From Pectobacterium fontis (lineage in GTDB: Bacteria > Pseudomonadota > Gammaproteobacteria > Enterobacterales > Enterobacteriaceae): 47,338 nucleotides of DNA. The notes under the pieces are model-generated. The model did no database searches. It saw only the letters and a list, made by a program, of their open reading frames with translations, and was not told the DNA's origin. Below, piece by piece: positions 18,766 through 43,945 of this stretch. Location of the stretch: the NCBI RefSeq assembly GCF_000803215.1, contig NZ_JSXC01000064.1, forward strand, positions 1 through 47,338, in the 5' to 3' direction. The position numbers and the translations under genes were made by a program. How positions within the stretch are numbered: the stretch's first letter is position 1; each line of letters opens with the position of its first letter.

Positions 18766-20043
18766 TTATTCCAGCGCTTTTGCCATCTGCTGTAGCCAGG
18801 CATCCACGCCAGTGCTCGGCACGTTCAGTTGCCGGTAGGTTGCTGTTGCCACGGGATAGCCGCCAACCTCTTCCTGACTGTTCAGGAAGCTGCCTTTGCG
18901 CTGTTTGAAATTCTCCACGATACGCTTATCGACAGCATCACGATCTTTAGGGCGTGCGCCTGCGCTTTGCAATACCTGATTGGTGACCGCACTGGCAGGT
19001 GATGCCGTTAAACCTGTTGGCCAAATAGGGGACACCTTGAGTAAATTAATCCCACTGCCTGAGGTTTGCGGCGCGGCTTTGCCCTTGGCATCATAGGCGA
19101 GGTTATCCGACATCCAGACATCGCCAGAGCTGTTGCTGCCTACCAGCCCTAAACCTGCTTTGGTATTTGCGCCATAGTGCATCACGTTACCTGCCACGGA
19201 AACGCGTGGGCTGGCAGGCATGGTTTTCCCTTCCCACTCTCCTGCGACTCCCCCAACGCGAACGCCCCAAATGCCGGGGTTGTAGATCAGATTATTGACC
19301 ATGACGCCCGTTGAGCCGGCCTTGAACCAGGCGTTGCGCTCATTATTGTGAGCATACAGGTTGCCCACAATCGCCACATCGGTCACGTTATCGTGAACCA
19401 GCGTGCCCATCGAGTGGATACCTTTGGTGTGGGCGGAGTCGTATAAGCCTTCTGCAACGATATTATTGGAGAGCGTGATGCGGTGCGCGGTGCCTTGTGG
19501 CCCGTCGTAGCGGGGGCCGGAAATAGACAGGTTTTCGTCTGTCCCCCACGCGAAACTGGAGTGGTCGATCACGACGTTGTAGGCATCTTTACCGTTGATG
19601 GAAACATCGCGTTCAAAGCCGCTTTTTTTACCCGTCCCGGCATCGCCGATGCGAAAACGAATATGCTGCATGAGCACATCATGCGTGCTAATCCCCATGC
19701 CGCCACGAATAATCGTGATGCCGGGAGAGGGAGCGGTCTGACCGGCGATAGTGACAAACGGCTCGCTTAATCTAAGGTCACTTTTATTCAGGTCGATAAT
19801 GCCGCCAACCTCAAAAACGATAATACGTGGCCCTTTGGCGGCGAGCGCTTCCCTGAGTGAACCTGCGCCGGAAGACGCCAGCGTTGTGACGCGAATAATG
19901 CGTCCACCGCTGCCTGCGACGGTATCCGTTCCGAATCCTTTCAACTCTGGTGCTGCCGGTGTGGCGGCGCTAGCCATCGGTATACCGACACTGAATGCTG
20001 CGCCAACGCTGAACAGTGCGGCGAACAGAAGAGAATGTTTCAT
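18766..20043 (-). CDS. pelZ: Secreted pectate lyase, PelZ-like
   Basis: The 425-residue precursor has a signal peptide (MKHSLLFAALFSVGAAFSVGIPMASA, about 26 residues in outline). The rest is a polysaccharide lyase family 1-type parallel beta-helix with repeated Asn-rich rungs (VVIDHSSFAWGTDENLSI, ITLSNNIVAEGLYDS, VAIVGNLYAHNNERN). Pectate lyases cleave polygalacturonate of plant cell walls by beta-elimination with Ca2+. Assignment to PelZ rests on length (Dickeya PelZ is about 420 residues) and location directly downstream of a PelB/C-type gene. A related pectate trisaccharide-lyase is the alternative. It has its own 170-bp upstream gap with a terminator before it. Confidence 0.75.
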   Translation of the reverse strand: MKHSLLFAALFSVGAAFSVGIPMASAATPAAPELKGFGTDTVAGSGGRIIRVTTLASSGAGSLREALAAKGPRIIVFEVGGIIDLNKSDLRLSEPFVTIAGQTAPSPGITIIRGGMGISTHDVLMQHIRFRIGDAGTGKKSGFERDVSINGKDAYNVVIDHSSFAWGTDENLSISGPRYDGPQGTAHRITLSNNIVAEGLYDSAHTKGIHSMGTLVHDNVTDVAIVGNLYAHNNERNAWFKAGSTGVMVNNLIYNPGIWGVRVGGVAGEWEGKTMPASPRVSVAGNVMHYGANTKAGLGLVGSNSSGDVWMSDNLAYDAKGKAAPQTSGSGINLLKVSPIWPTGLTASPASAVTNQVLQSAGARPKDRDAVDKRIVENFKQRKGSFLNSQEEVGGYPVATATYRQLNVPSTGVDAWLQQMAKALE

Positions 20044-25620: not shown

Positions 25621-25907
25621 ACTCTATGCCAACGGAGAAAAACGTGAAATAGGGTGGATGGATTTACAGTGGAATTACAGCACGTTTTGGAACGGTTCCC
25701 GCAAAAATGAGATGGGTTCTGAGAAAGTCGTTATTCAGTGGACTTCATTTATTCAAAAATCGGCTATTTAAAGATAATAAAATCATTTGCTTTGCCGATC
25801 GGCAAAGCACACTATCAAATTCATATTCTAATTAATTAGATCTATTCCATAGATTACGAACTTTTTATTATATCTATTGTAATGCTGTTTTTAAGAGGTA
25901 GAACACC
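25621..25907 (+). promoter_or_regulatory. Upstream region of the sulfur/encapsulin operon
   Basis: No gene is seen. The region is A+T-rich and carries a 22-bp perfect palindrome (25788-25809) and a 14-bp palindrome TCTAATTAATTAGA (25827-25840). The promoter of the sulfur operon should lie between these and the first start codon at 25908, which has AAGAGG upstream. No precise -10/-35 pair stands out. Confidence 0.5.
25788..25809. promoter_or_regulatory. 22-bp perfect palindrome, candidate operator
   Basis: The left arm TGCTTTGCCGA is followed directly by its exact reverse complement TCGGCAAAGCA with no spacer, centred 109 bp before the first gene of the sulfur operon. It is not followed by a T-run. 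The form suits a dimeric repressor or activator binding site. Confidence 0.6.
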
Positions 25908-26873
25908 ATGCCACAATTGAGTGAAATTTTTTATCCTTCACAGGAAAATATCAACTGGCATTTAGACAGCATTGTTGATGGATTAAAAGACGTTCGTCAG
26001 CAATGGCGTGATAAATACCTACAGAGTGATTATCGTAATAAGCGTCTTTTCCCTTCGAAAGAGAATATTAGTAGTATTGTCGATACGTTATTTAAAATTT
26101 TGTACCCCATGCGTTTAGGTGCCACCGATCTCAAAAAAGAGAGTGAGGATTATTACGTGGGGTATCTATTGGGTAACGTACTGGATCGGCTGGCTGAAGA
26201 GGCATTATTGGAACAGCGTTATAACGCTGGAGAATCATCTCATCGGGGTAATACGGCGACTGGCGACAGAGATGTTATTAGTCGAGTTAAGCAGTTCGCT
26301 GCGCAGTTACCTGAAATACGCAAACTGCTCGACAGTGATATTCTGGCAGCCTATCAGGGAGATCCCTCTGCGCGCAGCATTGATGAAGTGCTGTTGTGTT
26401 ACCCGGGTATTCACGCCGTCATTCACTACCGTTTAGCCCATGTGCTTTACCAACTGGATTTCCCGCTACTGGCGCGGATAATCACGGAGAAAGCTCACAG
26501 CCAGACGGGTATCGATATTCATCCCGGCGCGCAGATTGATGAGGCTTTTTTTATCGATCACGGCACAGGTGTGGTGATTGGTGAAACGGCGGTGATTGGA
26601 AAACGAGTACGTATCTATCAGGCTGTCACGCTGGGTGCCAAGAACTTCATTACCGATAGCAATGGTAATTTGAAAAAACGTTATCCTCGCCATCCGATTA
26701 TCGAAAATGATGTGGTGATCTACGCGGGCGCGACATTGTTGGGGCGTATTACTATCGGTGCACGTTCGAGTATTGGCGGTAACGTGTGGTTAACTCGTGA
26801 CACGCCGCCGGACAGCAATATTCGACAAGCCAGCCTATTACAAAGCCAATATAAAGATGGCGATGGGATTTGA
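25908..26873 (+). CDS. epsC: Serine O-acetyltransferase (long EpsC-type)
   Basis: This enzyme makes O-acetylserine from serine and acetyl-CoA, the acceptor for sulfur in cysteine synthesis. The 321-residue product has an extended N-terminal helical region and a C-terminal left-handed beta-helix with hexapeptide repeats (GIDIHPGAQIDEAFFIDHGTG, in part, then VVIGETAVIGKRVRIYQAVTLGAKNF). Active-site histidine segments IHPGA and DHGTG are intact. It is the long form seen outside the classical CysE group. It heads the sulfur operon; serine acetyltransferases of this type are known neighbours of family 2A encapsulins. Confidence 0.92.
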   Translation: MPQLSEIFYPSQENINWHLDSIVDGLKDVRQQWRDKYLQSDYRNKRLFPSKENISSIVDTLFKILYPMRLGATDLKKESEDYYVGYLLGNVLDRLAEEALLEQRYNAGESSHRGNTATGDRDVISRVKQFAAQLPEIRKLLDSDILAAYQGDPSARSIDEVLLCYPGIHAVIHYRLAHVLYQLDFPLLARIITEKAHSQTGIDIHPGAQIDEAFFIDHGTGVVIGETAVIGKRVRIYQAVTLGAKNFITDSNGNLKKRYPRHPIIENDVVIYAGATLLGRITIGARSSIGGNVWLTRDTPPDSNIRQASLLQSQYKDGDGI

Positions 26874-27051
26874 TTTTTTAATTTATCTTTATGGTTATTT
26901 GGCCGGAATATAATATCACTGGCGTTTTTTTTGTCGCAAAGTGATAATTAATAATCTTTTATTATGATTATCTCTACTTTTTAAAATAGACGGATTTATG
27001 TTTTCTTTAATTCAAAATAAAGAATAAATCGCCCTGCTTACGGAAATAAGT

Positions 27052-27951
27052 ATGAGTATTCTTAATCTTGTCGGAAATACGCCATTGTTAGCACTGCCGT
27101 ATTTTTCTGAAAAAACGCCGGGTGTTTCTCTGTTGGCAAAAGCGGAGTTTATGAATCCCAGCGGCTCAGTAAAAGATCGGGCAGCAAAAGCTATGGTGCT
27201 TGACGGTATTGCTCAGGGGAAGCTCGTGCATGGAAAGACAATCATTGACGCCACCAGCGGCAATACGGGCATCGCCTACGCGATGATCGGCGCGGCACTT
27301 GGGTATGACGTCATGCTCTATATGCCGCAGAACACCAGCAATGAGCGTAAACAGATTATTCGCCACTACGGCGCGACGATCGTAGAAACCGATCCGCTAG
27401 AAGGTTCCGATGGTGCTTATCTGGCGGTAAGAATGCAGGTGGAACAAGACCCCGAACGTTATTTTTATCCCGATCAATACAATAACCCCGTTAACTCCCA
27501 TACACATTTTGCCACGACCGGTTGGGAAATTTGGCAGCAAACGCACAAGCGTATTACGCACTTCATCACCAGCATGGGCACCTCTGGCAGCTTTGTCGGC
27601 AGTGCGCGGCGGTTAAAGCAGGAAAACCCTCTTATTCAAACGTTTGCGGTACAGCCTGCGTCTCCTCTACATGGTATTGAGGGCACCAAGCATATGGCTA
27701 GCAGCATCAAACCTGGCATTTTGGATGAAACGTTGCAGGACGGCGTGGTGACGGTAACGACGGAAGAAGCCTATACCGCCACTCGTCATCTGGCGAAGTG
27801 TGAAGGTATTTTTACTGGCATCTCTTCGGGTGCCAATGTGGCAGCGGCCTTGAAGTTAGCTCAGACGTTGCCGAGTGGGTCGGTGGTCGTGACGCTGCTT
27901 TGTGATACCGGTTCGCGCTATCTGGCAGATCCTTTTTGGAATGAAAGCTAA
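27052..27951 (+). CDS. cysM: Cysteine synthase (CysM-like, PLP-dependent)
   Basis: The 299-residue product is a fold-type II PLP enzyme. The PLP lysine is Lys41 in NPSGSVKDRAAK, and SGNTG and the phosphate-binding GTSGS loop are intact. Family members replace the acetyl or phosphate group of activated serine with a sulfur donor. The neighbours (JAMM protease and ubiquitin-like carrier) suggest, as in mycobacterial CysM-CysO-Mec, that the donor is a thiocarboxylated carrier protein rather than free sulfide. The acceptor is probably O-acetylserine because the acetyltransferase is the preceding gene. Its stop overlaps the next start (TAATG). Confidence 0.92.
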   Translation: MSILNLVGNTPLLALPYFSEKTPGVSLLAKAEFMNPSGSVKDRAAKAMVLDGIAQGKLVHGKTIIDATSGNTGIAYAMIGAALGYDVMLYMPQNTSNERKQIIRHYGATIVETDPLEGSDGAYLAVRMQVEQDPERYFYPDQYNNPVNSHTHFATTGWEIWQQTHKRITHFITSMGTSGSFVGSARRLKQENPLIQTFAVQPASPLHGIEGTKHMASSIKPGILDETLQDGVVTVTTEEAYTATRHLAKCEGIFTGISSGANVAAALKLAQTLPSGSVVVTLLCDTGSRYLADPFWNES

Positions 27952-28379
27952 TGATTCGATTAACCGCAGAAACGGAGCGCCTGATCCGGGTAGAGGGCGA
28001 AAAGACGTACCCCAATGAGTGCTGTGGTGCGCTGTTGGGGAGTTTTGACAAAAACGGTGATGCACAAGTGACGGCGCTGCTGCCCATCGTCAACGCGCGC
28101 GAGGCGCAGGAGCAATATCACCGTTTTATCATCACGGCAGATGACTACCTACTGGCAGAACGTACGGCGCGAGCGCAGGACATTGACGTGGTGGGTTTCT
28201 ACCATTCGCACCCGGATCATCCAGCCATTCCGTCTGAGTATGACCGTGAGCATGCCCTGCCGTTTTACGCCTATATCATCGTTGCTGTTGCCAAGGGGCA
28301 ATCTACCGATCTCACCAGTTGGCGGTTGACGCAGGATCGACAGCGTTTTGAACAGGAAGTGGTCGAGATTGCGCAGTGA
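27951..28379 (+). CDS. JAMM/M67-family metalloprotease (Mec/QbsD-like)
   Basis: The 142-residue product is a compact Zn2+ isopeptidase. The JAMM motif is perfect: HSHPDHPAIPSEYD fits H-x-H-x7-S-x2-D, with an upstream acidic residue in the NECCGALLG region. Bacterial members either release cysteine from a carrier-cysteine adduct (Mec of Mycobacterium) or trim a carrier's C-terminus to expose Gly-Gly (QbsD of Pseudomonas). The sulfur carrier in this operon ends five residues beyond its Gly-Gly, so both activities would make sense here. Cytoplasmic; no signal peptide. Confidence 0.92.
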   Translation: MIRLTAETERLIRVEGEKTYPNECCGALLGSFDKNGDAQVTALLPIVNAREAQEQYHRFIITADDYLLAERTARAQDIDVVGFYHSHPDHPAIPSEYDREHALPFYAYIIVAVAKGQSTDLTSWRLTQDRQRFEQEVVEIAQ

Positions 28380-28454
28380 TCGGCAGTGATAAGCAGTAAC
28401 AAAGTGATAGGGACGATGTGCCCTGATGTTGAACATGGTAGAGAGAGCATAACG

Positions 28455-28745
28455 ATGGCAGTGACATTATTGATTCCGACCGCATTACGCGCTTTTACTG
28501 ACGGTCAGGGGAAAGTGAGTCTGGAAGGTGAAACGGTTGGGCAACTGGTGGCGGCATTAGCTGCTAGTTATCCCGATATCCATCAGCATCTCTATGAAGA
28601 GAATGGCTCGCTGCGCGCTTTTATCAATTTATACGTAGGTGAAACCAATATAAGAACCACTGGCGGTTTAGATACGCCAGTTAAAAGTGGCGACGAGGTC
28701 CTTCTGGTGCCTGCCATTGCGGGTGGTGCCGGAGAGCGGGCATGA
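28455..28745 (+). CDS. Ubiquitin-like sulfur carrier protein (MoaD/ThiS/CysO family)
   Basis: The 96-residue product has the beta-grasp pattern of MoaD/CysO (VTLLIPTALRAFTDGQGKV... to ...SGDEVLLVPAIAGG). The start is the ATG at 28455, preceded by GAGAGA; an in-frame upstream extension lacks family similarity. Unusually, the terminal Gly-Gly is followed by AGERA, so the carrier must be trimmed before it can be adenylated. The JAMM protease two genes away in order is the obvious candidate. It overlaps the E1 gene by 4 bp (ATGA). Expected role: carry sulfur as a C-terminal thiocarboxylate. Confidence 0.9.
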   Translation: MAVTLLIPTALRAFTDGQGKVSLEGETVGQLVAALAASYPDIHQHLYEENGSLRAFINLYVGETNIRTTGGLDTPVKSGDEVLLVPAIAGGAGERA

Positions 28746-29917
28746 GTATTCCAAGCATTATTTCCGACGACCGTCTAACGGAACTGTCCCACGCAGAGAT
28801 TGCGCGTTACAGCCGCCATCTGCTGCTGGCGGAAGTCGGGCTGGAAGGGCAGCAACGCCTGAAAAGTGCACGCGTATTGCTGATTGGTACGGGTGGGCTG
28901 GGTGCACCGGTCGCACTGTATTTGGCCGCCGCAGGCGTAGGAACCATCGGCATCGTGGATTTCGATTTTGTCGACGTATCCAACCTGCAACGGCAGATCA
29001 TCCACAGCACCAAGGATATCGATCGCCCCAAGGTGGCCTCCGCCAAAGATAAAATTCGCGCCATTAATCCAGATATTGAGGTCGTGACCTACAACACGCA
29101 GCTCAGTAGTAAAAACGCGTTGGATATCATCCGCGATTACGACCTCGTTGTTGATGGCACCGACAACTATCCTACCCGTTATCTCATCAACGATGCCTGC
29201 GTACTGCTCGGTAAACCTAATGTGTACGGCTCTATTTTTCAGTTTGAAGGTCAGGCGAGTGTGTTCTATGCCAAAGCAGGCCCGTGCTATCGCTGCCTCT
29301 ACCCGACGCCTCCTCCTCCTGGGCTGGTGCCTTCTTGTGCTGAAGGCGGCGTAGTCGGTGTGTTGCCAGGAATTATTGGCACCATTCAGGCAGCAGAGGC
29401 CATCAAATTGATCGTCGGTGGCAGTGAGAGTCTGGTCGGGCGTCTGCTGTTATTCGACGTCTGGGAGATGAAGCAACGCGAGCTAAAGCTGGAAAAGGAC
29501 GCCAACTGCCCAGTCTGTGGTGAGCACCCGACAATTCATGCGCTGATCGACTACGAGGAGTTCTGTGGCTTAAAACCTAACGAAGCAGAGGCGCCTATCG
29601 AAAGCGTCACGGCTCGTGAGTTGAAAGCGTGGCTGGATGCGGAGAAACCGCTACAGCTGATCGATATTCGTGAGCCACACGAGCGGGCGATCGTGAAGTT
29701 CCCTGATGCCAAGGTGATTCCGCTCGGGCAGATCGTGCGTCGTATCGACGAGTTCGATCCCGCTGTAGATGTTGTGTTCCTCTGCAAGATCGGGCAGCGC
29801 AGTCTGTTTGCGATACGTGCCTTGCAGCGGGCGGGCTATACCGGTCGGGTATTAAATTTGAAAGATGGCATTAACGCGTGGGCGCAGGATGTGGATACCC
29901 GCCTGCCGCAGTACTGA
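28742..29917 (+). CDS. E1-like sulfur-carrier adenylyltransferase/sulfurtransferase (ThiF/MoeB-rhodanese fusion)
   Basis: The 391-residue product combines two domains. Residues ~15-255 are a ThiF/MoeB E1 domain with ATP-binding GTGGLGAPVALYLAAAGVG, Zn2+-ligand cysteines (CYRCLYP and CPVCGEH) and a conserved Cys in SCAEGGVVGVLPG. Residues ~285-388 are a rhodanese domain with active-site loop CKIGQRS. It should adenylate the trimmed carrier C-terminus, then pass a persulfide sulfur from the rhodanese cysteine to form the thiocarboxylate. The cysteine desulfurase encoded two genes downstream is the probable sulfur source. Confidence 0.94.
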   Translation: MSIPSIISDDRLTELSHAEIARYSRHLLLAEVGLEGQQRLKSARVLLIGTGGLGAPVALYLAAAGVGTIGIVDFDFVDVSNLQRQIIHSTKDIDRPKVASAKDKIRAINPDIEVVTYNTQLSSKNALDIIRDYDLVVDGTDNYPTRYLINDACVLLGKPNVYGSIFQFEGQASVFYAKAGPCYRCLYPTPPPPGLVPSCAEGGVVGVLPGIIGTIQAAEAIKLIVGGSESLVGRLLLFDVWEMKQRELKLEKDANCPVCGEHPTIHALIDYEEFCGLKPNEAEAPIESVTARELKAWLDAEKPLQLIDIREPHERAIVKFPDAKVIPLGQIVRRIDEFDPAVDVVFLCKIGQRSLFAIRALQRAGYTGRVLNLKDGINAWAQDVDTRLPQY

Positions 29918-29973
29918 AAACGCAAGGCAGTGTAAAAATCACTTATTGAAAGTAAAACCTAAGGGAAAACATC

Positions 29974-30918
29974 ATGACAGATAAAAACGTTCTGAACGCT
30001 CTGGGACGCGACGCCGCGTATCAACTCGCCAACGTGACCAAAACAGCACCGCAGTTTGGGGCAATTACCCCGCGCTGGGTCAGCAATTTTCTGGATTACA
30101 AGGGATTAGAAGCCGGGATCTATCGCGTTAACAAAGTGGTGGAAGGCGATACGCCGCTGGATGCGCTGTGCAGCCAGGATCCAACCCAGACTGAAATCCC
30201 TAAAGGGTATATCGAATACCAAACGCAGCCGCGTGAATATCAGTTGGATTCTCTCGCGACGATTATTAATGTCGATACCAAAATCGCGGATATCTACAGT
30301 TCACCGTTCGATCAGGCTTCCGAACAAATTGCGTTGGCGATTGAAAGCCTGCGCGAACGTCAGGAAAGCCAGCTAATTAATAACGATGATTATGGCCTGC
30401 TCAAGAATATTGCTGATTCTCAGCGGATCCAGACGCGCAATGGACGGCCGACGCCGGATGATTTGGATGAGCTGATTTCTAAAGTATGGAAAGAGCCGTC
30501 ATTTTTCCTGGCTCACCCGCGTGCTATTGCTGCATTTACCCGTGAAGCGACTCGCCGCGGTGTTCCGCCCGTTACGACCAACCTGCACGGCGGAACGTTT
30601 ATTCTATGGCGCGGTATCCCTGTGATCCCGTCGGACAAGCTGTTCGTTGACGGTTTGAAGAACCCGAAAGGTAAGGGCGGTAAAACCAACATTCTGCTGA
30701 TTCGCTCTGGTGAAGCCAAGCGCGGCGTGCTGGGTTTGTATCAGTCAGGGTTGCCAAATGAACAATCTCGCGGTTTATCTGTACGTTTCCGTGGCATTGA
30801 TGACAATGGCATTGCTTCTTACCTGCTTTCACTCTATTGCTCCGCTGCCATTCTGGCCGATGATGCTATCGCCGTATTGGAAGATGTTGAAGTAGGTGAA
30901 TATTATGACTACGAATAA
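29974..30918 (+). CDS. Family 2A encapsulin shell protein (SrpI-type nanocompartment)
   Basis: The 314-residue product matches my recollection of SrpI-type shell proteins: N-terminus MTDKNVLNALGRDAAYQLAN then VTKTAPQFGAITPRWVSNFL, and a C-terminal part with NILLIRSGEAKRGVLGLYQS and SYLLSLYCSAAILADDAIAVLEDVEVG. These have the HK97 phage-capsid fold and assemble into a ~60-mer icosahedral shell. No cyclic-nucleotide-binding insertion is seen, which points to family 2A rather than 2B. Known family 2A shells enclose a cysteine desulfurase; the next gene encodes exactly that, overlapping by 14 bp. No membrane segment or signal peptide. Recognition is by memory, without a database search. Confidence 0.88.
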   Translation: MTDKNVLNALGRDAAYQLANVTKTAPQFGAITPRWVSNFLDYKGLEAGIYRVNKVVEGDTPLDALCSQDPTQTEIPKGYIEYQTQPREYQLDSLATIINVDTKIADIYSSPFDQASEQIALAIESLRERQESQLINNDDYGLLKNIADSQRIQTRNGRPTPDDLDELISKVWKEPSFFLAHPRAIAAFTREATRRGVPPVTTNLHGGTFILWRGIPVIPSDKLFVDGLKNPKGKGGKTNILLIRSGEAKRGVLGLYQSGLPNEQSRGLSVRFRGIDDNGIASYLLSLYCSAAILADDAIAVLEDVEVGEYYDYE

Positions 30919-32389
30919 TCTTTCTCTGCCGGGTATCCCCGGCCCGTGGCCAGGCAGTGGTGAGCGCCCGCTGTCAGCCCGGGATTACGGCCTGCCGGAC
31001 GAGCGCGATTTGCTTGCATTACTGGGGAACAGAAGCCGTCCACAGGGTACGCCGGATCCGGCCTATGCGCCGAAAGTGGTTCCCTACGGTCAGGATATCA
31101 TTGTGCCCTCGGGCGCGACGGTACAACGATTGGGCGCAGCGTCTTCATCCGTGCCTGCACCGCTGGCGCGTGTTGGGCATGTTCCCGTGGAACAGATCCG
31201 CGCCGATTTCCCGATCCTGTCTGAACAGGTTGATGGCAAGCCGCTAGTCTGGTTGGACAATGCGGCGACCACTCAACGGCCAAAACAGGTTATTGATCGT
31301 ATCAGCCATTTTTACCTGCACGAAAACTCAAATATTCACCGTGCGGCGCATACGCTGGCTGCGCGCTCGACCGATGCTTACGAGGCTGCACGGGATAAAG
31401 TGGCTCGTTTTATCGGGGCAGGCAGTTCGGACAATATTGTGTTTGTACGCGGCACGACAGAAGGGCTGAACTTGATTGCCCAAAGCTATGTCAAACCGTT
31501 GTTACGTCCAGGAGATGAGATCATCCTGACGTTGCTGGAGCACCACGCCAATATTGTGCCGTGGCAATTGGTGGCTCAGGAGACTGGCGCGGTGATCCGT
31601 GTGGCACCAGTGGATGAACACGGGCAGTTGATTATTGAAGAGTATGTTCGCCTGTTCAATGACAAAACGCGTTTTGTTTCGGCTACCCACGTTTCCAATG
31701 CGTTGGGAACTGTGACGCCAATACAGGAGTTGGTGGCAATCGCCCACCGCTTTGGTGTACGCATTGCTATTGATGGTGCCCAGTCAATTTCGCATATCCC
31801 TGTGAATGTGACGACGCTGGACGCCGACTTCTTTGTCTTTTCCGGCCATAAAATCTTCGGGCCTACTGGCATCGGCGTGGTGTATGGCAAAAAGGAGGTG
31901 CTGGAGGAGGCACGCCCGTATCAGGGCGGCGGCAATATGATCGCTGATGTGACCTTTGAACTGACACGCTACCAGCCGGCACCGAACAAATTTGAGGCCG
32001 GAACGGGGAATATTGCTGACGCCGTCGGGCTTGGCGCGGCTATTGACTACGTCACTGCGCTGGGGATTGAGAATATCGCCCAGTATGAGCATGCGCTATT
32101 GGAGTACGGGATTGAGAAATTGTCACGGATTCCAGGGCTTAAACTGATCGGCACCGCCGCCCAGAAGACCAGCGTATTGTCGTTTGTGCTGCAAGGCCAT
32201 GAAAACGAAGCAATAGGGCGTTACCTCAGTCAGGCGGGGATTGCCGTACGCTCTGGACACCACTGTGCTCAGCCTATTTTGCGTCACTTTGGCTATGAAA
32301 GTACGGTGAGGCCTTCTCTCGCTTTCTATAACACGCCACAGGAAATTGATTTTCTGGCAGAAAAGATCTCACAACTGGCAGCACGCTGA
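30905..32389 (+). CDS. Encapsulin cargo cysteine desulfurase (SufS-type) with N-terminal loading extension
   Basis: The ~494-residue product is far longer than SufS (~406). Its first ~95 residues are Pro/Gly/Ala-rich and look disordered (SLPGIPGPWPGSGERPLSAR...), and the catalytic part begins near QIRADFPIL. Such extensions target desulfurases into family 2A encapsulins. The PLP lysine lies in FSGHKIFGPTGIG, and the persulfide-forming cysteine in VRSGHHCAQPILRHFG, the SufS-type (group II) active loop. The ATG at 30905 is chosen because AGGTGA precedes it; a GTG 9 bp upstream is the alternative. The enzyme takes sulfur from cysteine, probably inside the shell. Confidence 0.92.
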   Translation: MTTNNLSLPGIPGPWPGSGERPLSARDYGLPDERDLLALLGNRSRPQGTPDPAYAPKVVPYGQDIIVPSGATVQRLGAASSSVPAPLARVGHVPVEQIRADFPILSEQVDGKPLVWLDNAATTQRPKQVIDRISHFYLHENSNIHRAAHTLAARSTDAYEAARDKVARFIGAGSSDNIVFVRGTTEGLNLIAQSYVKPLLRPGDEIILTLLEHHANIVPWQLVAQETGAVIRVAPVDEHGQLIIEEYVRLFNDKTRFVSATHVSNALGTVTPIQELVAIAHRFGVRIAIDGAQSISHIPVNVTTLDADFFVFSGHKIFGPTGIGVVYGKKEVLEEARPYQGGGNMIADVTFELTRYQPAPNKFEAGTGNIADAVGLGAAIDYVTALGIENIAQYEHALLEYGIEKLSRIPGLKLIGTAAQKTSVLSFVLQGHENEAIGRYLSQAGIAVRSGHHCAQPILRHFGYESTVRPSLAFYNTPQEIDFLAEKISQLAAR

Positions 32390-32399
32390 CGCCTTCCCG

Positions 32400-32436
32400 T
32401 ACCGCTCTGGCTTTTGGCAGGAGCGGTATCTTTTTT
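32400..32436 (+). terminator. Intrinsic terminator of the sulfur/encapsulin operon
   Basis: TACCGCTC (32400-32407) pairs with GAGCGGTA (32421-32428), followed by TCTTTTTT. It lies just after the desulfurase stop and marks the end of the operon. Confidence 0.85.
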
Positions 32437-32494: not shown

Positions 32495-34090
32495 TTACGC
32501 CTTCCCCCGCCTCAACCCTTCCCAGCTCAACCCAAAACGTGCCAGGTATTTACGCAGTCGGTCAGCGTCGTTAGGTTTTTGTTTTTGCTGACGTGAGACG
32601 GCGAACAGCCGACGGCCCGCTTCGGAAAGTGAATGAGAAGTGCGGCAGACATCGAGTACGGTTTCAAGCTGGCGCTGCTCGAAGAGGTCGATATTGGTGA
32701 ATTCGGGCGGCAGTTCGGGTGATAGCGTAGCGGGTAGGGCATCACTCTGCCAGTTGGTTTGCAGACGGGTAATTTCTTCTTCCACCAGTGCGGCGGTGAT
32801 GCGACCTTGTTCCGCCAGCGTCGCCATACGGGCGATGGAGGAGCCTAGCTCGCGGAAGTTGCCACGCCATGCGGCCTGCGGCGCACAGGCAAAGGCGAGG
32901 TAGCGCTGACTCGCTTCTTTATCGAAACGGATTTGCATTTGGTTGTCGCGTGCGAAGCGCTGGATTTCATAGTCAATATTAGGCTCGATATCTTCCCGAC
33001 GCTCCGCCAGTCCCGGTAGGGGAAAGGTCCACATGTTGATGCGGGCGTAGAGATCTTCACGAAATTTTCCCTGCGTGATCCACTCGCGCAGGTTGCGGTG
33101 TGTGCCAGCAATCAATTGGAAATCGCTGCTGACCTCTTTATCTGAACCAAACGGTAAAAATCTTTTTTCTTCAATGGCCTTGAGTAGCATTGCTTGTTCA
33201 TCCAATCCTAATTCGGCGATTTCATCCAGAAACAGCATGCCGCCGTCGGCTTCACGCAGCAGCCCGCTTCTTGCTTGTAATGCACCGGTAAAGGCCCCCT
33301 TTACGTGACCGAACAGCGTTGACATGGCGTTATCGCCGCGCAGCGTGGCGCAGTTGACGGCAACAAAGCGACCGTTGACCAGATGGCGTGACTGACGTAG
33401 TTGGTAGATACGCTGTGCCAGAAAGGATTTACCCGCACCGGTCGGGCCGGTCAGGAGCATGGGGGCCGTGGAACGCAGTGCGACGCGTTCAATCTGGTCG
33501 ATCAGGGCGTTGAACGTGGCATTGCGCGTTTCGATACCCGATTTCAGGAACGAAATAGAGCGTTCCTGCTCGTGTTGGAAGCGGCTGGTAAGGGTGGTAT
33601 AGCGACTGAGATCCAGATCGATGATGGAGTAGATACCCTGCGGCGCCGGACGATCCGCTTTTTCACTCGGTGCGGTTTGCAGCAGCTTGGCTGGCAGGTA
33701 GCGGGCTTCCGTCAGCAGGAACCAGCAAATCTGCACGACGTGGGTGCCAGTGGTGATGTGGACGAAATACTCTTCATTCTCGGTGTCGAAGGTATAGCGG
33801 CTCGCGAAGTCGAGAAAGGCGCTGTAGACCTCTTCCAGATTCCACGGATCGCGCAGTTCAACGGCCTGAAGTGCGACCTGTGTGCGCGGCGATACCTCGG
33901 TGATATCGCCTGCCGTTTGTTGCGCCATCCCTTCATCACGCGGCTGGTGCAGTAGTTCCAGCCGGTCGACCGGGAAATCCGGCTGCTGACACAGGCCGAC
34001 AGTCGGTCGCCATTTCGTCCAGCGATTTGCCCGTTTACCCCGTTTATCCAGCGTGGTGCCCAGCACTCCGATGATGACGCGACGCTTCAT
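32495..34090 (-). CDS. rtcR: RtcR, sigma-54-dependent activator of the RNA repair operon
   Basis: The 531-residue product has an N-terminal RtcR sensor domain (to about residue 180; MKRRVIIGVLGTTLDKRGKR). The central AAA+ domain has Walker A GPTGAGKS and the sigma-54-contacting GAFTGA (in GHVKGAFTGAL), with Walker B LFLDEIAEL. A C-terminal segment with a likely helix-turn-helix follows (SLSEAGRRLFAVSRQQK). RtcR activates rtcBA when RNA damage is sensed by its N-terminal domain. It is divergent from rtcB, whose promoter has a matching -24/-12 element. AAGGTATAAC precedes the ATG. Confidence 0.95.
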   Translation of the reverse strand: MKRRVIIGVLGTTLDKRGKRANRWTKWRPTVGLCQQPDFPVDRLELLHQPRDEGMAQQTAGDITEVSPRTQVALQAVELRDPWNLEEVYSAFLDFASRYTFDTENEEYFVHITTGTHVVQICWFLLTEARYLPAKLLQTAPSEKADRPAPQGIYSIIDLDLSRYTTLTSRFQHEQERSISFLKSGIETRNATFNALIDQIERVALRSTAPMLLTGPTGAGKSFLAQRIYQLRQSRHLVNGRFVAVNCATLRGDNAMSTLFGHVKGAFTGALQARSGLLREADGGMLFLDEIAELGLDEQAMLLKAIEEKRFLPFGSDKEVSSDFQLIAGTHRNLREWITQGKFREDLYARINMWTFPLPGLAERREDIEPNIDYEIQRFARDNQMQIRFDKEASQRYLAFACAPQAAWRGNFRELGSSIARMATLAEQGRITAALVEEEITRLQTNWQSDALPATLSPELPPEFTNIDLFEQRQLETVLDVCRTSHSLSEAGRRLFAVSRQQKQKPNDADRLRKYLARFGLSWEGLRRGKA

Positions 34091-34110
34091 GTTATACCTT
34101 TATATAATTG

Positions 34111-34128
34111 TTTATCCTATTGGATAAA
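34111..34128. promoter_or_regulatory. Inverted repeat in rtcR-rtcB intergenic region, candidate RtcR enhancer site
   Basis: TTTATCC-TATT-GGATAAA is a perfect inverted repeat about 100 bp upstream of the sigma-54 promoter of rtcB. The location suits an upstream activating sequence for RtcR, but the sequence is A+T-rich and the assignment is a guess from position. Confidence 0.35.
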
Positions 34129-34224
34129 TTTATCTGTTATTGGGGGTTGGCGCTAGTTGCAGTGATAATTTTTTATTCTTTAATTATCAATATATTATAT
34201 TTTTATTGATCTGAATTATAACGT

Positions 34225-34240
34225 TGGCATGCCTTTCGCA
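34225..34240 (+). promoter_or_regulatory. Sigma-54 (-24/-12) promoter of rtcB
   Basis: TGGCATG-CCTT-TCGCA has the required GG (34226-34227) and GC (34238-34239) separated by exactly 10 bp, close to the consensus TGGCACG-N4-TTGCW. It lies 40 bp upstream of the rtcB start and fits regulation by RtcR. Confidence 0.82.
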
Positions 34241-34279
34241 ATATTCACAACGAACAATGACAAACAAAGAGAATAAAAA

Positions 34280-35515
34280 ATGGAAGAAATGAAAACGTTG
34301 GGTTACGACATGATGTCGCCAGTGAATAGTGCGCCGGTAAAAATGTGGACACAGGGCGTGCCTGTAGAGCCGGAAGCATATGCTCAACTGCTGAATACGG
34401 CTAAAATGCCGTTTATTTTTAAACACTTGGCGGTGATGCCGGATGTGCATCTGGGAAAAGGCTCGACGATTGGTAGCGTGATCCCCACGCGGGGCGCGAT
34501 TATCCCCGCGGCAGTCGGGGTGGATATCGGTTGTGGGATGATTGCCGTGCGTACATCTCTGGTTGCCAGCGACCTGCCGGATAACCTGATGGGGCTGCGT
34601 AGCGCGATTGAACAAGCGGTGCCGCACGGACGTAGCGTAACGCGTTCCAAGCGTGATGTCGGTTCCTGGCAGAACCCGCCGCAGACGGTGGATGCGCACT
34701 GGTCACTGTTGGAACCACGCTTTAAACGTTTGACGGATAAATATCCGCAGTTGCTGAAAACCAACAACTATCAGCATCTGGGAACGTTAGGAACGGGGAA
34801 TCACTTTATCGAAATCTGTCTGGATGAAGTGGATCGCGTCTGGGTGATGTTGCACAGCGGGTCGCGTGGTGTCGGGAATGCAATAGGATCGCTGTTTATC
34901 AAGCTGGCGCAGGAAGATATGCAACAGCACATTGCGAATCTACCGGATCGTAACCTGGCCTACTTCGAGGAAGGCAGCTTGCATTTCGACGATTACATCG
35001 AAGCGGTTGAATGGGCGCAGGATTTTGCCCGTCATAACCGTGAAGTGATGATGTCGCATACGCTGGCGGCGCTGTCTCGTATTGTGACGAAGCCCTTTAC
35101 CACTCAGCAGGAAGGTGTGAACTGCCACCATAACTATGTGCAGCGCGAAACGCACTTTGGCGAATCAGTGCTGATTACGCGTAAAGGTGCGGTGTCGGCG
35201 CAGAAGGGTCAAATGGGGATTATTCCGGGGTCGATGGGGGCGAAGAGCTTCATTGTGCGCGGATTGGGAAACGAAGAGAGCTTCTGTTCCTGTAGCCACG
35301 GCGCGGGGAGAACGATGAGCCGTACTGCGGCGAAAAAGCGTTTTACGGTGGAAGATCAGATCCGGGCGACCGCGCACGTTGAGTGCAGAAAAGACAGCGA
35401 CGTAATCGATGAAATTCCGATGGCGTACAAAGATATCGATAAGGTGATGGCGGCGCAGTCATCGCTGGTGGAAATTGTGCATACGCTGCGTCAGGTGGTG
35501 TGTGTGAAAGGATAA
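34280..35515 (+). CDS. rtcB: RtcB, 3'-phosphate RNA ligase
   Basis: RtcB joins RNA 2',3'-cyclic phosphate or 3'-phosphate ends to 5'-OH ends using GTP and Mn2+. The 411-residue product shows the family metal and guanylate-site segments: MPDVHLGKG, VGVDIGCGM, GTGNHFIE, LHSGSRG, NCHHNY, and the C-terminal CSHGAGRTMSR. The catalytic-His region CSHGAGR is intact. It is expressed from a sigma-54 promoter under RtcR. The gene following it is not rtcA but a nucleotidyltransferase. Confidence 0.96.
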   Translation: MEEMKTLGYDMMSPVNSAPVKMWTQGVPVEPEAYAQLLNTAKMPFIFKHLAVMPDVHLGKGSTIGSVIPTRGAIIPAAVGVDIGCGMIAVRTSLVASDLPDNLMGLRSAIEQAVPHGRSVTRSKRDVGSWQNPPQTVDAHWSLLEPRFKRLTDKYPQLLKTNNYQHLGTLGTGNHFIEICLDEVDRVWVMLHSGSRGVGNAIGSLFIKLAQEDMQQHIANLPDRNLAYFEEGSLHFDDYIEAVEWAQDFARHNREVMMSHTLAALSRIVTKPFTTQQEGVNCHHNYVQRETHFGESVLITRKGAVSAQKGQMGIIPGSMGAKSFIVRGLGNEESFCSCSHGAGRTMSRTAAKKRFTVEDQIRATAHVECRKDSDVIDEIPMAYKDIDKVMAAQSSLVEIVHTLRQVVCVKG

Positions 35516-36873: not shown

Positions 36874-37806
36874 ATGTCTAGCATTTTATCTAATTATACC
36901 CAAATGGACTCTTATAAGGGGTGCACGCCGGGTTCTCGTCGTAGTGCACTTCGTGAATTATTACAGCAGCAAAAAGGCATTCGCGTGATGGAGGCTCACA
37001 GTCCATTGTCTGCTTTATTAATAGAGCAAGCTGCTTATGAAGATGGTGATGTCCATTATCAATTTGATGCATTTTGGTCGAGTTCACTCACTGATTCTAC
37101 TCTACGGGGAAAACCCGACACAGAATTGGTGGATATGAGTCATCGTTTCCATGCTATTACGGAAATATTTGATGTCACCACCCGTCCATTAATTTTTGAC
37201 GGTGATACCGGAGGGCAAACTGAGCATTTAGCTCATCACATCCGTGCCGCGGAAAATTTGGGTATTTCCGCTATGATTATCGAAGATAAAACGGGTCTGA
37301 AGAAGAACTCTTTATTTGGCAACGAGGTAAAGCAAACGCAGGCTTCCGTAGAGGATTTTTGCGAAAAAATTACCACCGCCAAAAAAGCACAGCTTACGCC
37401 CGAATTTATGCTGATCGCGCGTATTGAGAGCCTGATTCTGGACGCCGGCATGGAAGATGCGATAAATCGTGCCCTGCGTTACGCTGATGCGGGTGCTGAT
37501 GGAATTATGATCCACAGTCGGCAGAAGAACCCCTCTGAGATTTTAGCTTTCGCTAAACAATTCCGCGAACATTATCCGCATTTGCCGTTGGTTTGTGTCC
37601 CGACCAGTTTTAACGATATTACTTTCGATCAACTGATTGATGGTGGATTCAATATCGTTATTTATGCAAACCATATGTTACGAGCAGCTTATCCTGCCAT
37701 GAAGTCTATTTTACCTGAAATTCTCAAACATGGTCGAACGCTGGAGGTCGAGGATAAATGCATGTCGATAAAAGACATCCTGGATCTTATACCCGGTACA
37801 CGATAG
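36874..37806 (+). CDS. aepX: Phosphoenolpyruvate phosphomutase (phosphonate biosynthesis)
   Basis: PEP mutase rearranges phosphoenolpyruvate to phosphonopyruvate, the committed step of nearly all phosphonate biosynthesis. The 310-residue product belongs to the isocitrate-lyase/PEPM barrel family. It carries the Mg2+-site segment FDGDTGGQ and the mutase-specific EDKTGLKKNSL (EDKxxxKxNS), which separates true mutases from phosphonopyruvate hydrolases and lyases. Its A+T-rich codon use differs from the downstream phn genes. A 213-bp gap separates it from aepY. Confidence 0.95.
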   Translation: MSSILSNYTQMDSYKGCTPGSRRSALRELLQQQKGIRVMEAHSPLSALLIEQAAYEDGDVHYQFDAFWSSSLTDSTLRGKPDTELVDMSHRFHAITEIFDVTTRPLIFDGDTGGQTEHLAHHIRAAENLGISAMIIEDKTGLKKNSLFGNEVKQTQASVEDFCEKITTAKKAQLTPEFMLIARIESLILDAGMEDAINRALRYADAGADGIMIHSRQKNPSEILAFAKQFREHYPHLPLVCVPTSFNDITFDQLIDGGFNIVIYANHMLRAAYPAMKSILPEILKHGRTLEVEDKCMSIKDILDLIPGTR

Positions 37807-38019
37807 CGAAATAAATGGTATATCAGTATAATTTTTTTATTACATTGTTGTTTTTTTTCATGAGAATATCTATATAAGATCATTCTCTGCATTTTAATTA
37901 ATCATTGTGATAAATAATTTTATTGATTCTGGTGGTTATTTCCCTAGGTTGTCTAAAAATAATTAAAAATGTCGTCGTTATTATTGTTCAATACAGTGTG
38001 ACGCGACGCGGAGGTTATT
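37807..38019. other. A+T-rich gap between aepX and aepY
   Basis: No gene or terminator is seen. The gap is long enough to contain a promoter for aepY and the genes after it, but no clear element stands out. Confidence 0.4.
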
Positions 38020-39165
38020 GTGACTGATCCGAATAAGCTCATCGAATTTCTTGTTCAGCGCGGGGTGCATTTTTTCAGCGGTGTTCCTGATTCATTATTA
38101 AAAGCATTTTGCCTGGCGATAGGCAGTAATCACGATGGGCTTGCTCACCGTATCGCGAGTAATGAAGGTTGTGCGGTGGGAATGGCGATTGGGCATTATC
38201 TATCGACGGGAACGCTACCCGTGGTCTATATGCAAAACTCGGGGTTGGGCAATGCGATCAACCCTCTCTGCTCTCTGGCTACACCCGATGTGTATGGCAT
38301 TCCGCTGTTACTGGTGATTGGCTGGCGCGGCGAGGTTGATGACGGCGGTAAGCAGCAGCACGATGAGCCGCAGCATGTGATGCAGGGGCGCGTCACATTG
38401 CCTCAACTCAATGTGCTGGCTATTCCACATATTGTGCTGGATAGCCATAACACGCCACCGTGGGATGATATTCAGGCGCTGCTCCAGCGTGCACATGATG
38501 AACACCGCCCTGTCGCACTGGTGGTGAGAAAAAACACGTTTTCTTCGGTAGCTGCGCCTGCCAATCCGGCGGTCGAATCGGCACTGATGCGGCGAGAAGC
38601 CATCGTCGGCGCATGTCTGAACGTGCTGCCCTCTCATCTCCCCATCGTGAGTACCACGGGCATGTTATCCCGTGAACTCTATGAACTGCGTGAACAGCGT
38701 GGGGAAGGGCATCAACGAGATTTTCTGACTGTCGGTGGAATGGGGCTGGCCAGCCAGATCGCACTCGGCCTGTGTGACGCCCAGCCGGAGCGGAAAGTCA
38801 TTTGTCTGGATGGGGATGGTGCGCTGTTGATGCACATGGGCGGGCTGACGAACACGGCTCAGGCGAGCAACCTGATACACATTGTCATCAATAACGGCGC
38901 CCATGACTCGGTGGGGGGGCAGCCCACGGTGGCGGCCCACTTACCGCTGTCGCCTATCGCTGCGGCCAGCGGCTATGGGGAAACCTACTACGTTGAGACA
39001 GAAGAAGCCTTGCGCACTGCGCTGCAACAGGCGTTGCGGGCGCAAAGTAGTCAGTTCATTGAGGTACGATGCCGCGTTGGCCACCGTAGCGATTTGGGGC
39101 GGCCTGCGACGTCTCCCGCTCAAAATCGCGATGCGTTTATGCAATTTCTTACTACATCAGCCTAA
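38020..39165 (+). CDS. aepY: Phosphonopyruvate decarboxylase
   Basis: This TPP enzyme decarboxylates phosphonopyruvate to phosphonoacetaldehyde, pulling the unfavourable PEP mutase reaction forward. The 381-residue product has the N-terminal Pyr domain (FFSGVPDSLLKAF; NEGCAVGMAIGHYLSTG with the catalytic-type Glu). The C-terminal PP domain has the TPP/Mg2+ motif GDGALLMHMGGL...NN. The GTG start at 38020 follows GGAGG by five bases. Length is normal for the family. Confidence 0.94.
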   Translation: MTDPNKLIEFLVQRGVHFFSGVPDSLLKAFCLAIGSNHDGLAHRIASNEGCAVGMAIGHYLSTGTLPVVYMQNSGLGNAINPLCSLATPDVYGIPLLLVIGWRGEVDDGGKQQHDEPQHVMQGRVTLPQLNVLAIPHIVLDSHNTPPWDDIQALLQRAHDEHRPVALVVRKNTFSSVAAPANPAVESALMRREAIVGACLNVLPSHLPIVSTTGMLSRELYELREQRGEGHQRDFLTVGGMGLASQIALGLCDAQPERKVICLDGDGALLMHMGGLTNTAQASNLIHIVINNGAHDSVGGQPTVAAHLPLSPIAAASGYGETYYVETEEALRTALQQALRAQSSQFIEVRCRVGHRSDLGRPATSPAQNRDAFMQFLTTSA

Positions 39166-39179
39166 GCCTCGTGATGCAT

Positions 39180-39200
39180 GGCAATACCCAGAGTATTGCC
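39180..39200 (+). other. Hairpin between aepY and the dehydrogenase gene
   Basis: GGCAATAC (39180-39187), loop CCAGA, GTATTGCC (39193-39200): a perfect 8-bp stem without T-run, 26 bp before the next start. It might affect relative expression of the flanking genes. Confidence 0.4.
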
Positions 39201-39226
39201 CATCCCTAGCGACAAGGATTGCCGAT

Positions 39227-40120: not shown

Positions 40121-40564
40121 ATGTCAACGTTAACACAGCGACAATATTGGATGTCCATTCTTGCTCACAGCGATCCTGCCGCACTGAAAGAATACTGGAA
40201 CACATTGCATTTTCCGACGCATTACCAGCTACTGCGTCCGACGCAGATAGGCCTTATTCAGTTGCAGGGAAGAATGGAGGTTGATGGCCCGCGCTTTATT
40301 GTGGGGGATATGACGGTGACGCGTGCGGCGGTAGAACTGGAGGATGGAACCTGTGGCTACAGCTACATCGCGGGAAGAAACAAGCCGCATGCCGAGCTTT
40401 GCGCCTGGATCGATGCACTTCTGCAAACTCGCACCTATTTTCATGAAATATGGGAACGAATTATCACGCCATTAGCAGACCAGCAGCTCGCTCATCGGGA
40501 ACGGCAGCAGCGGGAAGTGGCGGCCAGTCGAGTGAATTTCTTTACTTTGGTCAGGGGAGAATGA
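40121..40564 (+). CDS. phnG: C-P lyase core subunit PhnG
   Basis: PhnG is part of the PhnGHIJ core complex that attaches phosphonates to the C1 of ATP-derived ribose and cleaves the C-P bond. The 147-residue product has the expected length and the family pattern RQYWMSILA...GRMEVDGPRFIVGDMTVTRAAV...GYSYIAGRNKPHAEL. It begins directly at the stop of the dehydrogenase gene (no gap), with GAGGAG as ribosome binding site, so the biosynthetic and degradative parts share a transcript. Confidence 0.95.
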   Translation: MSTLTQRQYWMSILAHSDPAALKEYWNTLHFPTHYQLLRPTQIGLIQLQGRMEVDGPRFIVGDMTVTRAAVELEDGTCGYSYIAGRNKPHAELCAWIDALLQTRTYFHEIWERIITPLADQQLAHRERQQREVAASRVNFFTLVRGE

Positions 40565-40570
40565 TTTGTC

Positions 40571-43924: not shown

Positions 43925-43945
43925 ATCCAGCCAAAAGGACGTTTG

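What the first reader, a model, noticed from the sequence alone, without database searches (positions are those of the whole stretch)
25908..32389. Encapsulin nanocompartment operon fused to a carrier-protein (CysO/Mec-like) cysteine pathway
Seen: seven genes in one direction ending in a terminator, namely serine acetyltransferase, cysteine synthase, JAMM protease, ubiquitin-like carrier, E1-rhodanese, SrpI-like shell, extended SufS desulfurase. Known: family 2A encapsulins package cysteine desulfurases and have been linked to sulfur storage; CysM-CysO-Mec makes cysteine from a thiocarboxylated carrier in mycobacteria. Inference: one operon both stores sulfur taken from cysteine in a shell and remobilises it through rhodanese, E1 and carrier to O-acetylserine, a closed store-and-release loop. 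The combination is more elaborate than a plain shell-plus-desulfurase pair.
Basis: partly seen in the sequence, partly recalled or inferred. Interest (0 to 1): 0.92.

Follow-up and report, generated by a model that had tools for sequence, protein, structure and literature searches.

The report
Encapsulin operon with thiocarboxylate sulfur carrier
A seven-gene operon joins a protein-shell compartment, thought to hold a sulfur-removing enzyme, to a ubiquitin-like sulfur carrier pathway that probably makes cysteine; the same pairing recurs in related gut bacteria of many phyla, so shell and carrier very likely work together.

Summary
In detail: SAT, CysM-type synthase, JAMM protease, CysO-like carrier, E1-rhodanese, family 2A encapsulin shell and SufS-type desulfurase lie on one strand, then a terminator. 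E1-rhodanese directly precedes the shell in 65 of 67 loci.

(2) The last enzyme is exchanged: CysM or an O-acetylhomoserine sulfhydrylase, so the product is probably cysteine or homocysteine. (3) The genome has separate cysteine-pathway genes, and related genomes hold the operon without matching flanks, so it looks acquired.

Storage and release remain inferred. The cargo-loading motif is only weakly recognisable in the window. The type cyanobacterial locus already has cysteine synthase, SAT and rhodanese; carrier, E1 and JAMM are the new part. All rates hold for near relatives of this shell only.

The parts
25788..25809 (.). 11-bp perfect inverted repeat about 100 bp before the operon; possible operator or terminator, function untested
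   Evidence: I2; listed as terminator-like on the - strand
25908..26873 (+). serine O-acetyltransferase (EpsC type) with an N-terminal extension of about 130-140 residues; makes O-acetylserine
   Evidence: NF041874 165.9 bits, cut-off 150, matching residues 142-303; active-site motifs present
27052..27951 (+). cysteine synthase, CysM type; predicted to join O-acetylserine with the carrier thiocarboxylate
   Evidence: 44% identical to one of the genome's other cysteine synthases, that of L112
27951..28379 (+). JAMM metalloprotease; predicted to trim the carrier tail and to release cysteine from the carrier
   Evidence: E, HxH and D motif present
28455..28745 (+). ThiS/MoaD-type carrier, 96 aa, ending IAGG-AGERA; a pro-carrier whose diglycine is not terminal
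   Evidence: best solved relative 3dwg_C, aligned through that chain's last residue
28742..29917 (+). E1-like adenylyltransferase with C-terminal rhodanese domain (MoeZ/Uba4 type)
29974..30918 (+). family 2A encapsulin shell protein (HK97 fold family, SrpI-like)
   Evidence: 486.8 bits, cut-off 380; 8t6r 381.7 bits, SrpI 6x8m 366.8 bits
30905..32389 (+). SufS-type cysteine desulfurase with an N-terminal extension of about 90 residues; predicted cargo of the shell
   Evidence: (NF041166 796.8 bits, cut-off 800)
30986..31030 (+). partial motif YGLPDERDLLALLGN in the desulfurase N-terminus; many relatives continue with YFPEF, the window does not
32400..32436 (+). intrinsic terminator: 8-bp stem, 13-nt loop, T run

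Best explanation
The operon is a two-module sulfur system. Module 1 (shell plus desulfurase, with SAT) takes sulfur off cysteine inside a family 2A encapsulin and holds it, as persulfide or elemental sulfur. Module 2 (JAMM, carrier, E1-rhodanese, CysM) takes sulfane sulfur from that source: the JAMM trims the pro-carrier to expose GG, the E1 adenylates GG, the rhodanese cysteine delivers sulfur to make a carrier thiocarboxylate, CysM joins it to O-acetylserine from SAT, and the JAMM releases cysteine. Shown here: the genes, the presence of their catalytic motifs, the GG-plus-tail carrier, co-conservation and correlated divergence across phyla, and the exchange of CysM for an O-acetylhomoserine sulfhydrylase. 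Inferred: cargo loading, storage, direction of sulfur flow, use of the thiocarboxylate by this CysM, and both JAMM reactions.
For: Profiles over or just under cut-off for most genes. In 50 named loci with enough flank (within 6.5 kb, shell strand): E1 in 43, carrier in 43, both in 42, JAMM in 41, CysM or OAH sulfhydrylase in 34, complete set in 32. E1 ends within -50 to +400 bp of the shell start in 65 of 67, same strand in 67 of 67. Terminal enzyme exchange: 20 CysM, 14 OAH sulfhydrylase, 0 both at the score limits used. AGG invariant in 34 of 34 aligned fused carriers although internal, and residues 87-93 around it have pLDDT under 50 in the predicted fusion, so are probably flexible. Sequence distances correlate between E1 and desulfurase (0.65), shell and E1 (0.46), E1 and carrier (0.87), each above all of 300 permutations. 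Shells with carrier and E1 all fall on one side of a branch with 100% SH-aLRT (72 of 87 rows there; of 16 rows on the other side, 12 can be judged and none has them). Literature: 2A shells load the desulfurase by its N-terminus and raise its activity (PMC8049743, passages); the sulfur system is said to store sulfur (PMC10960027, passage); the sulfur donor of the CysO/MoeZR pathway was unknown in 2011 (PMC3227635, passages).
Against: No biochemistry. Cysteine to sulfur to cysteine is futile unless separated in time. The window's desulfurase N-terminus does not score for the published loading motifs (LARLANEFFS p = 0.14, AASPYYFLDG p = 0.69 by shuffling). The genome has other cysteine synthase, cysE- and cysH-type genes, so the operon is probably not needed for cysteine synthesis. 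6 of 87 shells on the carrier side sit in loci long enough to judge and have neither carrier nor E1, 2 more are partial, so the shell can probably do without the module. SAT is found in only 30 of the 50 loci, and a terminal enzyme in 34. The CysM's closest solved relatives are E. coli-type CysM; no 3dwg chain (the mycobacterial partner, as I recall) is among the 60 of 71 chains shown. Shell-carrier distance correlation is only 0.26, and 0.13 for cross-phylum pairs.
Confidence: 0.55

Rival explanations
1. Direct relay without storage. The encapsulated desulfurase simply hands persulfide to the E1-rhodanese, as desulfurases do for MOCS3-type enzymes, and the shell insulates or activates it. With the OAH sulfhydrylase this moves sulfur from cysteine to homocysteine without cystathionine.
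For: The E1 gene directly precedes the shell in 65 of 67 loci; E1 and desulfurase distances correlate at 0.65; a co-regulated rhodanese as the sulfur acceptor at the shell was already proposed for 2A operons (PMC8346489, passage); it makes the homocysteine variant non-futile.
Against: It makes the CysM variant, including the window, a futile cysteine cycle; and an enzyme enclosed in a shell would have to pass persulfide to a large protein that, as far as is known, stays outside.
Confidence: 0.2
2. Parallel assimilation. The carrier pathway builds cysteine or homocysteine from outside sulfide, thiosulfate or persulfide, and is merely co-regulated with the shell under sulfur stress.
For: Carrier, E1-rhodanese, JAMM and cysteine synthase operons, and carrier operons with OAH sulfhydrylase and sulfate uptake genes, were described with no shell mentioned in the passages read (PMC1779556); genes that read, by eye and without a profile search, as sulfate transporter and sulfite reductase-like precede the operon in Fibrobacter L036; some shells on the carrier side lack the module.
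Against: Strict adjacency of E1 and shell and correlated divergence over nine named phyla; none of 12 judgeable classical loci has it.
Confidence: 0.15
3. Protein modification. The carrier is a SAMP/Urm1-like modifier attached by the E1 to shell or desulfurase and removed by the JAMM, regulating the compartment.
For: NCBIfam names among the matches are SAMP1 (55.8 bits, cut-off 60; best for the carrier), desampylase (66.9 bits, cut-off 130; best for the JAMM) and SAMP-activating E1 (338 bits, cut-off 450; not the best for the E1).
Against: All three are below cut-off; a CysM or OAH sulfhydrylase accompanies the set in 34 of 50 loci, as expected for sulfur transfer.
Confidence: 0.06
4. In the window's lineage the desulfurase no longer enters the shell and the operon is partly decaying.
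For: Published loading motifs not significant in the window and its three enterobacterial relatives L018, L098, L099; the YFPEF half of the shared motif is missing in all four.
Against: Reading frames and the catalytic motifs tested are intact in the window; the shell is 91-96% identical to those of three relatives whose loci share no flank with the window, which suggests that selection keeps it; YGLPDERDLLALLGN is retained.
Confidence: 0.04

Closest known systems
Family 2A encapsulin with cysteine desulfurase cargo (SrpI/CyD of Synechococcus elongatus)
   Same: Shell family, desulfurase family, SAT neighbour; the type locus also has cysK and a free rhodanese
   Different: Carrier, E1 and JAMM are added; rhodanese is fused to E1; the cysteine synthase is CysM type; the desulfurase N-terminus is short and lacks the full published motifs
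CysO-CysM-Mec-MoeZ cysteine pathway of mycobacteria (PMC3227635, passages)
   Same: Carrier is closest to 3dwg_C among solved structures (that this chain is CysO is recalled); same enzyme set including an E1 with rhodanese
   Different: Carrier has a 5-residue tail after GG; SAT suggests O-acetylserine rather than O-phosphoserine; an encapsulin and a desulfurase are in the same operon, giving a candidate sulfur source
Operon class ThiS/MoaD + E1-rhodanese + JAB + cysteine synthase (Iyer 2006, PMC1779556, Table 1 row 4c, passages)
   Same: The four-gene cassette
   Different: No shell or desulfurase in the passages read (the term desulfurase does not occur in that text)
Protein thiocarboxylate-dependent methionine pathway of Wolinella succinogenes (reference title seen in PMC5764234; details recalled)
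   Same: Many relatives of the window's operon carry an OAH sulfhydrylase (14 of 50), and 23 of 24 loci with a second E1 also have a ThiS-like small frame (one checked by profile)
   Different: Not in the window's operon; in the relatives it is joined to an encapsulin and a fused carrier-E1-rhodanese

Membership tests
Family 2A encapsulin | Shell protein matches the family 2A profile | tested here: met
   NF041162 486.8 bits, cut-off 380; 2B model 371.2, below cut-off 400; SrpI 6x8m 366.8 bits
Family 2A encapsulin | No cyclic-nucleotide domain (separates 2A from 2B) | tested here: met
   Only PF19307 found in the 314-aa protein at E 0.001
Family 2A encapsulin | Adjacent cysteine desulfurase with N-terminal extension | tested here: met
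   Overlapping gene, NF041166 796.8 bits against cut-off 800, extension of about 90 residues
Family 2A encapsulin | Published loading motifs in the cargo N-terminus | tested here: inconclusive
   LARLANEFFS-like p = 0.14, AASPYYFLDG p = 0.69; related motif YGLPDERDLLALLGN retained in part
Family 2A encapsulin | Assembly into an icosahedral shell that holds cargo and sulfur | not testable with these tools
   needs expression and microscopy
CysO-CysM-Mec pathway | CysO-like carrier | tested here: met
   Best solved relative 3dwg_C, 6e-19
CysO-CysM-Mec pathway | Carrier ends in a free diglycine | tested here: not met
   AGERA follows GG in the window; 28 of 29 free relatives also have a tail
CysO-CysM-Mec pathway | JAMM protease and E1 with rhodanese in the operon | tested here: met
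CysO-CysM-Mec pathway | Cysteine synthase that accepts the carrier thiocarboxylate | not testable with these tools
   Sequence closest to E. coli-type CysM among solved structures shown
Wolinella-type thiocarboxylate homocysteine pathway | OAH sulfhydrylase beside carrier, E1 and JAMM | tested here: not met
   Not among the seven genes of the window operon; OAH sulfhydrylase present in 14 of 50 relatives
SAMP/Urm1 protein modification | Carrier conjugated to lysines of target proteins | not testable with these tools
   needs mass spectrometry

The most novel reading that the evidence does not exclude
A distinct encapsulin type in which the protein shell is the sulfur store for a ubiquitin-like carrier pathway. 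The carrier is a protease-activated pro-protein, the output enzyme is exchangeable (cysteine or homocysteine), and the set has moved, largely as a unit, among gut bacteria of at least nine phyla. The compartment would then be the missing sulfur donor of a CysO-type pathway.
Probability: 0.45. Interest if true: 0.85.

Novelty: new variant of a known kind. Interest (0 to 1): 0.72.

Why it matters
How sulfur leaves a 2A encapsulin after the desulfurase has taken it from cysteine is, as far as I could read, open, and the sulfur source of the CysO/MoeZ pathway was called unknown in 2011. An operon that encodes both, with the link conserved over many phyla, makes both questions directly testable with one set of purified proteins. 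It also suggests that a virus-derived shell is wired to a ubiquitin-like sulfur-transfer system in gut bacteria, with a possible new cysteine-to-methionine route.

Tried and rejected
Chance adjacency: rejected by co-conservation and strict E1-shell order.

A carrier-E1-rhodanese-shell single protein in L051 (7612-9915): not claimed. Its carrier is also split by a frame break and it is one metagenome contig, so a sequencing or frame error is likely.

Plasmid or E. coli carriage of the window's own operon: no near match in 72,556 plasmid records nor in the E. coli genomes; records very near the window's genome may be left out of these collections.

A phage-labelled record with a similar E1 (MT835529.1): the 10.8 kb looked at has no shell by profile and, by eye, transporter-, MoeA- and MoaA-like reading frames, so it looks like a bacterial contig; not relevant.

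Window-type JAMM elsewhere in Pseudomonadota: 120 of 398 genomes pass E 1e-12, but the window scores 241 bits and the next best 114. Of the 30 best loci, one is the window's own (L159) and has the set; of the other 29, only L160 has a CysM and none has carrier or E1 by my profiles (these loci are only about 3.4 kb long).

Extraction of one of the genome's own cysteine synthases (L111) picked a wrong frame; that line was discarded (the L112 comparison was kept).

A first regular expression for the diglycine missed valid sequences and was replaced; one carrier fragment of L051 was skipped there.

Most are metagenome bins, so organism labels may be wrong, but the linkage is on single contigs. For the 50-locus tally, 30 of the 80 were dropped for short flanks; over all 80: E1 68, carrier 66, both 65, JAMM 59, CysM 30, OAH sulfhydrylase 17. 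JAMM counts include weak matches and the second JAMM. The control set is 16 loci, all Pseudomonadota, of which 4 have short flanks, so 12 are judged by the same rule; 5 long 2B-like shells also lack the module. The Fisher value compared 43 of 50 with 0 of 16, so mixed the two rules, and both it and the hypergeometric value ignore relatedness; I do not lean on them. CysM and OAH sulfhydrylase exclusivity uses score limits of 350 and 450 bits, the shell's strand and 6.5 kb; L051 has an OAH sulfhydrylase on the other strand and L031 a weaker cysteine synthase beside its OAH sulfhydrylase. The tree is a quick one without bootstrap. N-terminal stretches came from stop-to-stop frames cut to 260 residues, so some hold residues before the true start; p values there are uncorrected.
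Full report
What is there. The window is contig 68 of a 4.15-Mb genome of 105 contigs. Seven genes at 25908-32389 run in one direction: serine acetyltransferase, CysM-type cysteine synthase, JAMM protease, ThiS/MoaD-type carrier, E1 with rhodanese, family 2A encapsulin shell, SufS-type cysteine desulfurase. From the synthase on, neighbouring genes overlap or lie at most about 75 bp apart, and an intrinsic terminator follows at 32400-32436. The catalytic motifs tested are present in the window for E1 and rhodanese, JAMM, desulfurase, cysteine synthase and SAT.

Identity. The shell scores 486.8 bits against the family 2A encapsulin model (cut-off 380) and 366.8 bits against the solved SrpI. The desulfurase scores 796.8 bits against the 2A cargo model, whose cut-off is 800. 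The carrier's closest solved relative is 3dwg_C, which I recall as mycobacterial CysO; the alignment ends at that chain's last residue, GG, while the window continues with five more residues. The E1 is closest to Uba4, ThiF and MoeB, the JAMM to 2kcq, the synthase to E. coli-type CysM.

Co-conservation. Profiles built from the window's genes and their relatives were used to map the neighbourhoods. Of 50 loci with at least 3.5 kb upstream and 2.5 kb downstream, the desulfurase is present in 50, E1 in 43, carrier in 43, both in 42, JAMM in 41, SAT in 30, CysM in 20, O-acetylhomoserine sulfhydrylase in 14, and the complete set in 32. Of 16 classical proteobacterial 2A loci, 16 have the desulfurase, 15 SAT, and none E1, carrier, JAMM, strong CysM or OAH sulfhydrylase; 12 of the 16 have flanks as long as asked of the 50; five long 2B-like shells have none either. 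In 67 named loci with strong matches to both, E1 and shell are on the same strand, and in 65 E1 ends within -50 to 400 bp of the shell start.

Trees. A quick shell tree of 103 rows puts the carrier-associated shells on one side of a branch with 100% SH-aLRT: 72 with carrier and E1, 6 without, 2 partial, 7 at contig ends; the other side has 12 without and 4 at contig ends. At least 6 changes of the carrier label and 4 changes between CysM and OAH sulfhydrylase are needed. The 65 named loci with both E1 and carrier span nine named phyla. Distances correlate within the shell module (shell-desulfurase 0.82, shell-SAT 0.78), within the carrier module (E1-carrier 0.87, E1-CysM 0.71) and between them (E1-desulfurase 0.65, shell-CysM 0.58, shell-E1 0.46); shell-carrier is only 0.26, and 0.13 across phyla. 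This fits a set that travels largely together, with some exchange of modules.

A pro-carrier. In 29 free carriers the IAGG or VAGG motif is followed by a tail in 28; 18 of these tails are 1-5 residues. In 44 loci the carrier is fused to the N-terminus of E1-rhodanese, and the diglycine is kept in all 44; AGG is invariant in the 34 aligned fusions. A predicted fusion (L059, mean pLDDT 84.9, pTM 0.62) has pLDDT under 50 at residues 87-93, around the diglycine; Foldseek's best match is Uba4. The simplest reading is that a protease, presumably the JAMM of the operon, cuts after GG. I recall similar maturation in QbsE and HcyS; that was not tested.

Exchangeable output. In many rumen and gut Bacillota, in Fibrobacter and others, CysM is replaced by another enzyme; the one from L036 scores 423 bits with the OAH/OAS sulfhydrylase model (cut-off 495). 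No locus of the 50 has strong versions of both on the shell strand. In 23 of 24 loci with a second, rhodanese-free E1, a second ThiS-like small frame ending in GG plus a tail was found by pattern (one of these was checked by profile, 68.9 bits against cut-off 37.45). The sulfhydrylase may use O-acetylserine too, so homocysteine as product is an inference.

An acquired extra. The 2A profile is found in 3 of 149 genomes of the window's family, the window's own included, and in none of the two same-genus genomes listed. The genome has two further strong cysteine synthase matches (452 and 399 bits), a cysE-type (246 bits) and a cysH-type (291 bits) gene. The operon is 83%, 75% and 75% identical over its main aligned stretch in three related genomes, but the flanks do not match at E 1e-10 within the few kb held. 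The shells of these three are 91-96% identical to the window's.

Weak point. Nichols et al. (PMC8049743, passages) describe two motifs in the cargo N-terminus. In the window neither is significant by shuffling. Relatives share a motif of the form YGLPxExELAxLAxxYFPEF; the window and its enterobacterial relatives keep YGLPDERDLLALLGN or close forms and lack YFPEF. LARLANEFFS-like matches reach p 0.05 in 18 of 20 OAH-type, 13 of 29 CysM-type, 16 of 18 carrier loci with neither enzyme seen, and 10 of 17 carrier-less loci; AASPYYFLDG-like matches in 0 of 20, 1 of 29, 1 of 18 and 9 of 17. Loading is therefore likely by family but not shown.

Mechanism. The best reading is two coupled modules. The encapsulated desulfurase takes sulfur from cysteine and the shell holds it; E1-rhodanese, working on a JAMM-matured carrier, takes it up as a thiocarboxylate; CysM, fed by SAT, or an OAH sulfhydrylase in relatives, makes the amino acid on the carrier, and the JAMM releases it. 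Storage rests on literature about another 2A system (PMC10960027 passage; the original report was not held), the rest on anatomy. Direct relay without storage, parallel assimilation and protein modification are rivals.

Known and new. SAT and rhodanese were reported as the most enriched accessories of 2A desulfurase operons (PMC8346489, passages), and the S. elongatus type locus has cysK, SAT, shell, desulfurase and rhodanese. The carrier, E1-rhodanese, JAMM and cysteine synthase cassette was described in 2006 (PMC1779556, passages). In the searches made I saw no paper that joins the two; two of these lists were capped (20 of 1,273 papers listed; 40 of 96), and the words ubiquitin and MoeB do not occur in PMC8346489, nor ubiquitin and rhodanese in PMC8049743. 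The library lacks most subscription papers and the main sulfur-storage paper, and supplementary tables of PMC8049743 and PMC8346489 were not read, since no supplement look-ups were allowed, so a listing there is possible.

Noticed in passing
L190 (S. elongatus pANL): The type 2A locus is cysK, epsC (SAT), srpI, cyd, rhodanese: the same logic without carrier, E1 and JAMM.
   Followed up: partly
L189 (Aliarcobacter cibarius plasmid pACIB) 3025-12351: The same carrier-type operon on a plasmid, with insertion sequences between JAMM and carrier and between the E1 part and the rhodanese part.
   Followed up: partly
L051 7612-9915: One open frame reads through carrier, E1-rhodanese and shell; probably a frame error of a metagenome contig.
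   Followed up: partly
L054 12710-14181 and 22 further loci: A second carrier system (ThiS-like carrier, E1 without rhodanese, JAMM) next to the encapsulin operon.
   Followed up: partly
L099 12643-12757: A 115-bp copy, 86% identical, of the 3' end of the window's SAT gene lies downstream of the operon, possibly a trace of how it was inserted.
   Followed up: no
window 36874-45788: Phosphoenolpyruvate mutase and phosphonopyruvate decarboxylase (phosphonate synthesis) some 5 kb from a PhnM-type gene (phosphonate breakdown).
   Followed up: no
window 18766-20043: Pectate lyase PelZ, 917.8 bits against cut-off 840, which may point to a plant-associated organism.
   Followed up: no
window 32495-35515: An RtcR regulator (Pfam) and an RtcB-like ligase (matches below cut-off) directly after the operon's terminator.
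   Followed up: no
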